Of a stretch of DNA of 64,000 bases, positions 41,369 through 47,597 are shown in pieces (the first letter of the stretch is position 1; each line of letters begins with the position of its first letter). The stretch covers positions 124,898-188,897 of the forward strand of contig NZ_SJPS01000002.1 of assembly GCF_007860015.1 (NCBI RefSeq). The letters run 5' to 3'. The translations under genes and the position numbers were made by a program. The notes beneath the pieces were generated by a model. It was not told where the DNA came from. It saw only the letters and a program-made list of their open reading frames with translations, and did not search any database. This DNA is from Bythopirellula polymerisocia. Its GTDB lineage: Bacteria; Planctomycetota; Planctomycetia; Pirellulales; Lacipirellulaceae.

Positions 41369-41629
41369 TCACCTCGGCGCCTGCGGCCGACGGAAGCCAA
41401 TTTCCTCCAATGCTTTGTAAACTTCGTCGAGGGTCTTCTCGCCGAAGTTGGAAATGCTCAGCAGGTCTTCCCGCGTGCAATGGAGTAGGTCGTCGACCGT
41501 GAAGACGCCTTTTTCTTCAAGGCAGTTGGTCGTGCGTACGGCGAGGCCGATTTCGGCCGTGCTCATCTCGAGGCGATCTTTCATGCCCTGGTTGGCAAGT
41601 TCGGCATGATTCAGTGGGACACGTGTCAT
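41369..41629 (-). CDS. Stand-alone RNA polymerase alpha subunit C-terminal domain protein
   Basis: 86 residues and only one domain: the alpha-CTD with two helix-hairpin-helix motifs. Aligned to E. coli RpoA, the DNA-contact residues R265, N268 and C269 are kept (VRTTNC, R32, N35, C36), as are the Gly and Lys of the second HhH (NFGEKTL). The N-terminal domain needed for polymerase assembly is absent. GGGAGGGAA six bases before the ATG is a strong RBS. Likely binds UP-like DNA or competes with polymerase alpha at promoters; could act as a regulator. Function inferred, fold secure. Confidence 0.85.
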   Translation of the reverse strand: MTRVPLNHAELANQGMKDRLEMSTAEIGLAVRTTNCLEEKGVFTVDDLLHCTREDLLSISNFGEKTLDEVYKALEEIGFRRPQAPR

Positions 41630-41975
41630 CGTGGGTTCCCTCCCTGGGTCTAGATGTCTGGTAAATTATGCGGGGCCGAAAAGCTTGCCGCAATGCTCGG
41701 CGATTCACTCGAAGATTCGTCGAACAATTACTCCGTATGGCCGGAAGTATAGCAATTAGTTGGCAATGAACGCTAGAAAAAACCTCTCTGAGCAGAAAAT
41801 TTCTCGACTTCCTTCAGAGATGCTGTCATTGGCGCGAGTAAACTGCACGGCGTAGGATAGAGATGTTGCCTCAGCCGGGCCAACAGTTTTTTACTGGAAC
41901 AAACGATTGTTAGAACCGCACACTTTGCTCTTGGAGGAAGGCGAGCGTCCGGCTGGGAGAAGTAAAAGGAATCTT
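41630..41975. other. Divergent 346-base intergenic stretch
   Basis: Lies between the alpha-CTD gene (minus) and the helicase gene (plus), so both promoters are expected here. No coding frame or repeat of note. A frame from 41907 continues into the helicase but starts before its likely RBS. Confidence 0.4.
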
Positions 41976-44300
41976 GTGGACCCATTATTCGAAGCACTTA
42001 ACCCTGCCCAATGCGAGGCGGTACGCCATGTCGAGGGACCAATGCTCGTTCTGGCGGGCCCGGGCAGCGGGAAGACTCGCGTCGTCACCCACCGCATTGC
42101 CCACCTGCTGCGGGAAGGGATCCCTGCGTCTCAATTGCTAGCTTTGACATTTACTAACAAGGCATCCGCCGAGATGCACCAGCGGGTTGAGGAATTGGCC
42201 CCCGGTGAGCGAGTCTGGGTCAGCACCTTTCACCGGTTCGGGGCTCGACTTCTGAGGCACTATTCTGAGCTGGTGGGACTGACTCCCAATTTTACGATCT
42301 ACGACACGGCCGACGCCAAGCAGACGCTCTCCCGAGTGATCGACGCCGGCCGAGTCAATACGCTCCATTACACTCCTGACCGGATAGCCCACGCTATCAG
42401 CGATGCCAAGAACAAGCTCATCACAGCCGACAAGTTCGAGCCGCGTCCTGGGAGTCCGCTAAGCCAGATCGTGGCCGAGGTTTATCCGGCCTACCAAAAG
42501 CGGCTGATCGCTTCGTCAGCGGTCGATTTTGACGATCTCTTGCTCCACGTCGCGCAGCTTCTTTACCAGAGCCCCGAGGTCCGTGCGGAGCTCGACGAAC
42601 GGTTCCGATACCTGCTGGTAGACGAGTATCAAGACACCAATCATGTTCAATATGTCATGCTCCGGGCCCTGTCGGTGGACTATCCTAACCTGGCAGTAAC
42701 CGGCGACCCCGACCAATCGATCTACGGCTGGCGCGGTGCCGACATCAAGAACATTCTGCAGTTCGAGAACGACTTCCCCCAAGTCAAAGTGGTCCGTTTG
42801 GAGCAGAACTATCGCAGCAGCAAGAGAATCCTGCGCGTGGCCGACGATCTAATCCAACATAATCTGCGACGCAAACAGAAATCATTGTTTACGGACAATG
42901 CCGAAGGTCCCGCCGTCCGACTAGTGGAATTCGCGAGCCAAGACGCCGAGTCCACTGGCATCGCGGCTTCTATCGCCGAAGCCATTGAGGCAGGCCAGCG
43001 CCGCGCCTCAGATTTCGCCATCCTCTACCGAGTCAACGCTCTTTCGCGCTCGCTTGAACGGGGACTACGCGAGGCGGGGGTACCGTATCAAATCATCCGA
43101 GGTCAGGAGTTCTATGGTCGCAAAGAGATCAAAGATGTGCTGGCCTACTGCCAACTCATCAACAATCCACGCGACGATCAGGCAGTCCTCCGCACGATCA
43201 ATACCCCGACGCGTGGCATTGGCCGCAAGACGGTCGATCTCTTGAGCGATCATGCCTACCGAGAGGGGATTCCCCTACTGGACGCAGCCCGCGAAGCATC
43301 ATCGATTGCTGGAATCGCGGCCCGTTCTGCCAAGAAAGTTGCCGTTTATGTGGCTCTGATGGACCACCTTTGTGAACTTGCGAATGGTGACCTGGAAGAA
43401 ATCCTTGGCACGGTTTTGGAGGAATCCGGCTACCGGGCCTCCCTGAGTGAAAGCGACAGCGAGGAAGACCTCAACCGTCTGGCCAACATCGAGGAACTGC
43501 TCACCGATGCCCGTCAATTCGACGAGCAGAATCCTGGCGGCGGTCAGTTGGAAACCTACCTGGAAAACGCCTGGTTAGTGAACGAGACCGATGATTGGGA
43601 GAGCGAAACCGATAAGGTCACGCTAATGACGCTCCACGCCGCCAAGGGACTTGAGTTCCCCGTGGTGTTCATCATCGCGATCGAACATGGCCTCCTCCCA
43701 CACGAACGCAGCACCAGCGACGAAGCACAACTGGAGGAGGAACGACGCCTGGCTTTCGTAGGAATCACCCGGGCCAAGGAAGAACTCCAGTTGAGCTACG
43801 CCATCGAGCGAGACTTCCGCGGCCAGCGGCGCCATACGGTCCCCAGTTCATTTCTGATGGAGATTCCTCGCGATGCTCTTGAGCTTGTCACGTCCTCGCC
43901 AGACATGGAAAACTGGCACGACGAATCCTGGCTCGATGAAGAACAAGAATACGCGGAAGAAGATCAATCGGACGAGTTCGCTGATGTTTCGTTCGATTTC
44001 GGTGCAGCTGCGGAGCCAAAAGCTGAGTCCCCCGCAGAGAAATCTGCAGATTGGCCGACGGTGGCAGGACAGATTACCACAGCGGCAGCGCTCGCCGGCG
44101 TGGTGCAAGACTCCGAGCCCCGCGTTTCTCCCGATGCATTTGCCCAAGGAATGACGGTGGTTCATCCGAAACATGGCGTGGGCAAGATCGTGGCACTCTC
44201 CGGCTCAGGAAAAAACCGCCGAGCGACGGTCCGCTTTGTCACGGTTGGCGAGAAACGTTTTATCCTTGCTTATAGCCCCCTGCGACCTGCGGGGAAGTAA
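41976..44300 (+). CDS. UvrD/PcrA-type ATP-dependent DNA helicase
   Basis: 774 residues from the GTG at 41976 with AAAAGGA at the right distance; the family starts VDPLFEALNPAQ as here. All SF1A motifs are present: I AGPGSGKTRVV, Ia ALTFTNKASAEM, II LLVDEYQDTNHVQY, III VTGDPDQSIYGWRGA, IV LEQNYRSSKRIL, V LMTLHAAKGLEFPVVF, VI EERRLAFVGITRAKEEL. The end carries a tudor-like GMTVVHPKHGVGKIVAL module typical of PcrA/UvrD. Acts in nucleotide excision repair, mismatch repair and replication restart. An acidic linker lies between the helicase core and the tudor-like end. Confidence 0.92.
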   Translation: MDPLFEALNPAQCEAVRHVEGPMLVLAGPGSGKTRVVTHRIAHLLREGIPASQLLALTFTNKASAEMHQRVEELAPGERVWVSTFHRFGARLLRHYSELVGLTPNFTIYDTADAKQTLSRVIDAGRVNTLHYTPDRIAHAISDAKNKLITADKFEPRPGSPLSQIVAEVYPAYQKRLIASSAVDFDDLLLHVAQLLYQSPEVRAELDERFRYLLVDEYQDTNHVQYVMLRALSVDYPNLAVTGDPDQSIYGWRGADIKNILQFENDFPQVKVVRLEQNYRSSKRILRVADDLIQHNLRRKQKSLFTDNAEGPAVRLVEFASQDAESTGIAASIAEAIEAGQRRASDFAILYRVNALSRSLERGLREAGVPYQIIRGQEFYGRKEIKDVLAYCQLINNPRDDQAVLRTINTPTRGIGRKTVDLLSDHAYREGIPLLDAAREASSIAGIAARSAKKVAVYVALMDHLCELANGDLEEILGTVLEESGYRASLSESDSEEDLNRLANIEELLTDARQFDEQNPGGGQLETYLENAWLVNETDDWESETDKVTLMTLHAAKGLEFPVVFIIAIEHGLLPHERSTSDEAQLEEERRLAFVGITRAKEELQLSYAIERDFRGQRRHTVPSSFLMEIPRDALELVTSSPDMENWHDESWLDEEQEYAEEDQSDEFADVSFDFGAAAEPKAESPAEKSADWPTVAGQITTAAALAGVVQDSEPRVSPDAFAQGMTVVHPKHGVGKIVALSGSGKNRRATVRFVTVGEKRFILAYSPLRPAGK

Positions 44301-46703: not shown

Positions 46704-47597
46704 GAACGTGTTTTGAAATTCAATAATTGGTTTTCGCGAGTCTTTTTGACATGAGTCTAATCATGGCGATATAGGTGATCGCCTCGCTGGAGGCGGCTGT
46801 TTTTTCGTAGTCTTTACTTTGACGTCGATGGCGTGCCAACCAAGCGAAGGTCCGTTCGACAATCCAGCGTTTGGGCAACACGTCAAAGCCCTGAGCACCA
46901 ACCGGCCGCAACACCGTTTGCAGAATCCAACCGAACGTTTCCATTACCCATTCGGGCAAACCTCCACGACCGTAAGCAAGATCTCCAAAGACCACCTTGA
47001 TCCGCTTGTATTGTTCTCCCAGCTTTTCCATGACCCATTCCGCGCCGTCTTGATCTTGCCAGTCTGCCGCATGAACCACGATCGTCAGTAACAATCCCAG
47101 CGTATCGACGGCCACATGTCGCTTGCGGCCCGTGATTTTCTTGGCCGCGTCGTAGCCTCTTTCCTCACCTCCCTCAGCCGTGCGGATCGACTGACTGTCA
47201 ACAATTGCTACCGTAGGCGTCGATTTCTTGCCAGCAGCCTTCCGCGTCTTCGCTCGCAAAGCATCATGAATCTTTTGCCAAATTCCGTCATTTCGCCACC
47301 TCCAAAAGACATTGTAGACGGTGCTCCAATTCGGAAAGTTCCTCGGCAGCATTCGCCACTGGCAACCAGTTCGTACGACATACAAAACCGCGTTGATAAT
47401 CCGTCGGCGGTCTATCGGACGACGCCCCAGCCGCGAGGGCCGTGGCAGCAGTTGGCAAATCAATTGCCATTGTCGGCTAGTCAAATCGCTGGAATACTTT
47501 ATCTCCGTCTTCATGCTGCGGCTCCTTCCAAAGGCTGCTTACCAAAAGAGGGAGCCGTAGCTGTTTTTTACAATGCAGGCAATTTCAAAACACGTTC
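46704..47597. mobile_element. Complete IS5-family insertion sequence (894 bp)
   Basis: Terminal 17-bp inverted repeats GAACGTGTTTTGAAATT (46704-46720) and its exact complement (47581-47597) are perfect. They are flanked by a TAA target duplication (46701-46703 and 47598-47600), as expected of the IS1031/IS427-like groups of IS5. The element contains one intact transposase gene on the minus strand. Both ends and the target duplication are clean, so the insertion is recent. Confidence 0.9.
46720..47514 (-). CDS. IS5-family transposase
   Basis: 264 residues, full length. DDE residues are visible: Asp in VAIVDSQSIRT, Asp in VVFGDLAYGRGG and Glu in RWIVERTFAWLARHRR. The N-terminal segment RQWQLICQLLP and GCQWRMLPRNFPNWSTVYN are typical of the IS5/DUF4096-type transposases. 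Its stop codon overlaps the terminal inverted repeat, as in compact IS elements. No frameshift, so it may be active. Confidence 0.95.
   Translation of the reverse strand: MKTEIKYSSDLTSRQWQLICQLLPRPSRLGRRPIDRRRIINAVLYVVRTGCQWRMLPRNFPNWSTVYNVFWRWRNDGIWQKIHDALRAKTRKAAGKKSTPTVAIVDSQSIRTAEGGEERGYDAAKKITGRKRHVAVDTLGLLLTIVVHAADWQDQDGAEWVMEKLGEQYKRIKVVFGDLAYGRGGLPEWVMETFGWILQTVLRPVGAQGFDVLPKRWIVERTFAWLARHRRQSKDYEKTAASSEAITYIAMIRLMSKRLAKTNY

What the first reader, a model, noticed from the sequence alone, without database searches (positions are those of the whole stretch)
41369..41629. Free-standing alpha-CTD with intact DNA-contact residues
An 86-residue protein is only the RNA polymerase alpha C-terminal domain and retains the equivalents of R265, N268, C269 and the second HhH. 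Without the assembly domain it cannot join polymerase in the normal way, so it could compete for UP elements or tether other factors. A strong RBS suggests it is well expressed.
Basis: partly seen in the sequence, partly recalled or inferred. Interest (0 to 1): 0.6.

Follow-up and report, generated by a model that had tools for sequence, protein, structure and literature searches.

The report
Stand-alone polymerase alpha tail protein
A tiny protein that is nothing but the DNA-gripping tail of bacterial RNA polymerase's alpha subunit has been kept, almost unchanged, across a whole order of planctomycete bacteria, and its own gene has just the kind of spaced A/T-rich control region that such tails bind, which makes a free-acting, possibly self-regulating gene regulator a testable idea.

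Summary
An 86-residue ORF (41369-41629, minus strand) is a complete RNA polymerase alpha C-terminal domain (aCTD) without the assembly domain; the same genome has a normal, intact rpoA. It is not a relic. One copy occurs in 279 of 296 Pirellulales genomes sampled and in none of ~215 other Planctomycetia genomes. It is monophyletic, dN/dS is about 0.04, and its core (83% mean identity) is more conserved than the aCTD (72%) or NTD (74%) of rpoA in the same genomes. The E. coli '265' DNA-contact set is kept (R265, N268, C269, N294, G296, K298, T299, E302), including K298, which every Planctomycetota rpoA sampled has lost. New here: its gene has an order-wide conserved promoter, an extended -10 (TGnTATACT) plus A/T tracts near -41, -51 and -61 with 10.5-bp phasing, the geometry of a UP element; control promoters lack this. 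The gene is usually divergent from a PcrA/UvrD helicase gene carrying the RNAP-binding Tudor domain. Best reading: a trans-acting UP-element/A-T minor-groove binder, probably acting on its own promoter. Protein identity and constraint are shown; DNA binding and regulation are inferred.

The parts
41369..41629 (-). ORF of 86 aa, stand-alone aCTD protein (stop included)
   Evidence: orthologs
41393..41584 (-). aCTD domain, residues 16-79
   Evidence: PF03118 and aCTD structures of the PDB
41522..41536 (-). first DNA-contact cluster R32 T33 T34 N35 C36 (= E. coli R265..C269)
   Evidence: invariant in 54 orthologs
41423..41443 (-). second HhH, G63 E64 K65 T66 L67 D68 E69 (= E. coli G296..E302; K65 = K298)
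   Evidence: K298 replaced by T in the genome's rpoA
41638..41644 (-). Shine-Dalgarno GGGAGGG
   Evidence: conserved in orthologs
41746..41754 (-). extended -10 TGCTATACT of the aCTD gene
   Evidence: TATANT in 93/104 orthologous upstream regions; 12 of 104 expected by shuffling; TATA[ACT]T before 32/499 control genes
41777..41782 (-). A/T tract at about -38 to -43 (proximal UP position)
41796..41802 (-). A/T tract at about -57 to -63 (third UP position)
41829..41858 (+). candidate promoter of the divergent pcrA/uvrD gene, TTGGCG-N18-TAGGAT
   Evidence: conserved in near relatives only
41907..44300 (+). divergent PcrA/UvrD helicase with C-terminal Tudor domain (true start probably GTG 41976)
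   Evidence: TIGR01073 747 bits (below cut-off 911), PF21196 Tudor 27.2 bits over cut-off 23.9; divergent neighbour in 78 loci

Best explanation
It is a dedicated paralog of the RNA polymerase alpha C-terminal domain that works in trans as a small A/T-tract (UP-element) minor-groove binder. Shown: identity of the domain, order-wide constraint, conserved DNA-contact set, single origin, and a conserved own promoter with phased A/T tracts at aCTD-binding positions. Inferred: the protein occupies such tracts next to RNA polymerase, competing with or adding to the polymerase's own two aCTDs (which lack K298 in these bacteria), and thereby tunes UP-element promoters, first of all its own. Because the tracts lie between its promoter and that of pcrA/uvrD, the helicase gene may be co-regulated.
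For: aCTD by sequence and model (rmsd 1.1 over 61 columns to a solved aCTD). One copy in 279/296 Pirellulales genomes, none in ~215 other Planctomycetia genomes. Core identity 83% against 72% for rpoA aCTD over 105 genome pairs, higher in 100 of them. dN/dS median 0.040. The contact residues given for E. coli in PMC7822876 (R265 and N294 in the minor groove, K298 on the backbone) are kept. A/T blocks at -62..-59, -53..-48 and -42..-39, period 10.5 bp, power 0.155 against a null maximum of 0.043, 0/2000; control promoters show none; the pattern is kept where pcrA is absent (0.234 vs 0.243). Isolated aCTD binds a UP-like promoter in gel shifts (PMC2801614).
Against: No binding, expression or knockout data. 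The phased tracts could simply serve the polymerase's own aCTDs to give strong expression. E. coli K291, also a backbone contact, is S here. No dimerisation element was identified, and a lone aCTD may bind DNA weakly. In the window species only the -41 and -61 tracts are clear. The block boundaries used for the comparison with controls were set after seeing the profile, and only 32 control promoters were available.
Confidence: 0.45

Rival explanations
1. The protein acts through protein contacts: it is a decoy or adaptor that binds partners of the polymerase's aCTD (activators, sigma region 4, NusA, Spx-like factors) and titrates or bridges them; DNA contact is secondary.
For: Residues outside the DNA face are also invariant (S23, A25, E26, I27, G28 in the 261-determinant region, Y71 nearly, R81). 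The N-terminal MTRIPL motif is conserved.
Against: The 287 determinant is partly lost (no R317 equivalent, E286 to R/P), and E261 is G. The full DNA-contact set would not need to be frozen.
Confidence: 0.25
2. It is an HhH DNA-binding accessory of the divergent PcrA/UvrD helicase, working at transcription-replication conflicts or R-loops, not at promoters.
For: Divergent PcrA/UvrD in 78 of 98 informative loci across the order; the helicase has the Tudor domain that binds RNAP in B. subtilis PcrA (PMC8318588). Other neighbours of either gene are less conserved.
Against: 20 loci with upstream sequence available lack the helicase nearby, yet keep the protein and its promoter pattern. Divergence suggests co-regulation, not a complex.
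Confidence: 0.15
3. The phased A/T tracts are an ordinary UP element used by RNAP itself; the protein is just highly expressed and its target is elsewhere.
For: Positions -41/-51/-61 are where RNAP aCTDs bind (established knowledge; for -60 to -40); strong RBS and near-consensus -10.
Against: Does not explain why this gene, out of those scanned, has such a promoter (no other site in 864 kb reaches the window site's score; that site was in the training set), nor the frozen DNA-contact set.
Confidence: 0.14
4. It is a remnant of a broken or duplicated rpoA without function.
For: It is homologous to the rpoA tail and nests weakly among Planctomycetia rpoA aCTDs.
Against: Intact rpoA of 348 aa elsewhere; order-wide orthologs with dN/dS 0.04; conserved promoter and RBS.
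Confidence: 0.01

Closest known systems
RpoA aCTD (PF03118; E. coli residues ~250-329)
   Same: Same fold and 265 DNA-contact set; about 40-46% identity to the best-matching solved aCTDs
   Different: No NTD, no linker; R317/LGMR tail absent; E261 to G; invariant R81 and an N-terminal MTRIPL motif
TPR + two aCTD protein of planctomycetes (here C6:343255-343707, beside tgt)
   Same: aCTDs outside RpoA in the same genome
   Different: About 440 aa with TPR repeats; separate clade; lacks K298
NF005841 / PRK07758, 95-aa hypothetical protein
   Same: A small aCTD-like protein family already in NCBIfam
   Different: Only 19 bits against a cut-off of 115: not the same family
aCTD-bearing phage proteins (Bacillus phage Goe8, 210 aa; IMG/VR contig L266, 113 aa)
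   Same: aCTD-like domain in a protein too short to be a whole alpha subunit, about 43% identity
   Different: Viral, different flanks, not orthologous

Membership tests
RNA polymerase alpha subunit (RpoA) | N-terminal assembly/dimerisation domain | tested here: not met
   86 aa, only the CTD; rpoA equivalogs match only their last ~70 positions
RNA polymerase alpha subunit (RpoA) | C-terminal domain with the 265 determinant | tested here: met
aCTD domain family PF03118 | score over the curated cut-off, HhH fold | tested here: met
   66.2 vs 23.8 bits; model matches solved aCTDs, though mean pLDDT is only 70
NF005841 small aCTD-like protein | score over cut-off 115 | tested here: not met
   19 bits
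UP-element binding protein | residues R265, N268, C269, N294, G296, K298, S299, E302 | tested here: met
   R, N, C, N, G, K, T, E; invariant but for one E302Q in 54 orthologs; S299 is conservatively T
UP-element binding protein | binds A/T-rich promoter DNA | not testable with these tools
   needs gel shift or footprint

The most novel reading that the evidence does not exclude
Pirellulales possess a dedicated, trans-acting 'third aCTD': a self-regulated small protein that occupies UP-element subsites alongside RNA polymerase and sets promoter strength genome-wide, compensating for a polymerase whose own aCTDs lost the K298 contact.
Probability: 0.3. Interest if true: 0.82.

Novelty: new variant of a known kind. 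Interest (0 to 1): 0.62.

Why it matters
The aCTD is known as a tethered part of polymerase. A free one that a whole order keeps under stronger constraint than polymerase's own, with a UP-element-like promoter of its own, suggests promoter strength can be set by a soluble UP-element binder. It can be tested directly with one small protein and one 120-bp DNA.

Tried and rejected
First AlphaFold job with only orthologs gave pLDDT 56 and was dropped. A first control with too strict a gene filter gave only 20 sites and was replaced. An rRNA promoter comparison found no TATA[ACT]T or TA[ACT]AAT site in the ~1.5 kb before 16S, so nothing can be said. GCTAGC as a specific operator: strongly enriched here (77/104 regions) but also mildly enriched in intergenic DNA generally (51 vs 30 expected), so not specific. 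The two plasmid hits looked at were full-length rpoA. Literature searches found no paper on a free-standing aCTD in planctomycetes.

Full report
OBSERVATION. The ORF lies on the minus strand, ATG 41629 to stop 41369, 86 residues. It is an RNA polymerase alpha C-terminal domain by Pfam (66.2 bits, cut-off 23.8) and by comparison with solved aCTDs (8e-13). An AlphaFold model made with a mixed aCTD alignment (mean pLDDT 70, modest) superposes on a solved aCTD with 1.1 A over 61 columns. Residues R32, N35, C36, N61, G63, K65, T66 and E69 correspond to E. coli R265, N268, C269, N294, G296, K298, S299 and E302. In 54 orthologs all are invariant, except one E302Q. A strong Shine-Dalgarno is conserved.

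NOT A REMNANT. The genome has an intact rpoA (348 aa) on another contig and a TPR protein with two aCTDs beside tgt. Orthologs occur, one per genome with a single exception (two matches in G424), in 279 of 296 Pirellulales genomes; the genomes without a match are drafts. None occurs in about 215 other Planctomycetia genomes (the one hit there, G575, is a 340-aa rpoA-length frame). A profile search confirms this and leaves a clear gap between orthologs (E below 1e-37) and rpoA-length hits (1e-22 and weaker). In a phylum-wide sample the best hits outside the order are longer frames, mostly of rpoA length. The group is monophyletic (100/100) on a long stem, weakly nested among Planctomycetia rpoA aCTDs (63 columns, so placement is unsure). 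This fits one duplication in the ancestor of the order. dN/dS between near relatives is 0.04. Over 105 genome pairs the core is 83% identical, against 72% for the aCTD and 74% for the NTD of rpoA; it is the more conserved in 100 pairs against the rpoA aCTD.

A DETAIL OF INTEREST. All rpoA aCTDs sampled from this phylum have T where E. coli has K298, while the stand-alone protein always has K. K298 makes a backbone salt bridge, and R265 and N294 enter the minor groove, in the E. coli rrnBP1 closed complex (PMC7822876).

PROMOTER. Upstream regions of 104 orthologous genes contain TATANT within 220 nt in 93 cases (12 expected from shuffles) and an extended -10 in 58 (7 expected). TATA[ACT]T occurs before only 32 of 499 control genes. 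Anchored on this -10, A/T content peaks at about -62..-59, -53..-48 and -42..-39, within and just beyond the UP-element region (-60 to -40) where aCTDs bind. After thinning to 72 sequences below 45% identity, periodicity peaks at 10.5 bp with power 0.155; 2000 randomised registers never exceed 0.043. Control promoters show no such pattern (score -0.005 against 0.242). The block score was defined after seeing the profile, so the periodicity test is the fairer one. The pattern is the same in loci that lack the helicase neighbour (0.234), so it belongs to this gene. In the window species the -41 and -61 tracts are present and the -51 tract is weak.

NEIGHBOURHOOD. A PcrA/UvrD helicase is divergent in 78 of 98 informative loci, some being the same genome from two collections. 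It carries the Tudor domain that binds RNAP in B. subtilis PcrA (PMC8318588). The other neighbours of the two genes are less conserved. Co-regulation from shared upstream DNA is plausible; a physical link is not shown.

MECHANISM. The best-supported reading is a trans-acting binder of A/T tracts, acting at UP-element positions and probably on its own promoter. Isolated aCTD does bind a UP-like promoter in vitro (PMC2801614). Adaptor, helicase-accessory and 'ordinary strong promoter' readings remain open. Identity, constraint and promoter pattern are shown; binding and regulation are inferred.

NOVELTY. aCTD domains outside rpoA are known from annotation and phages. I found no described function for a free-standing one. 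It is a new variant of a known kind.

Noticed in passing
G000:C6:343255-343707 (L002 658-1980): TPR protein with two tandem aCTDs next to tgt, seen widely among the planctomycete genomes sampled; also without described function that I know of.
   Followed up: partly
upstream of the aCTD gene, 53-79 nt before its -10 in many orthologs: Palindrome (T)GCTAGC(A) in 77 of 104 upstream regions (about 8 expected); mildly enriched in Pirellulales intergenic DNA in general (51 vs 30).
   Followed up: partly
L266 2887-3228: 208-kb IMG/VR viral contig encodes a 113-aa aCTD protein with NFGEKTL but diverged first contact cluster (RIVNT).
   Followed up: no
L264 154-786: Bacillus phage Goe8 protein of 210 aa with a C-terminal aCTD, annotated as RNA polymerase subunit alpha.
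   Followed up: no
L122: A C. difficile record filed as plasmid carries rpoA-rplQ and an ECF transporter gene: probably chromosomal DNA labelled as plasmid.
   Followed up: no
L164, L192: Contigs titled Nealsonbacteria and Alphaproteobacteria carry this Pirellulales gene: probably mislabelled or mis-binned MAGs.
   Followed up: no
46720-47514: Minus-strand ORF that reads like an IS5-type transposase (by eye, not searched).
   Followed up: no
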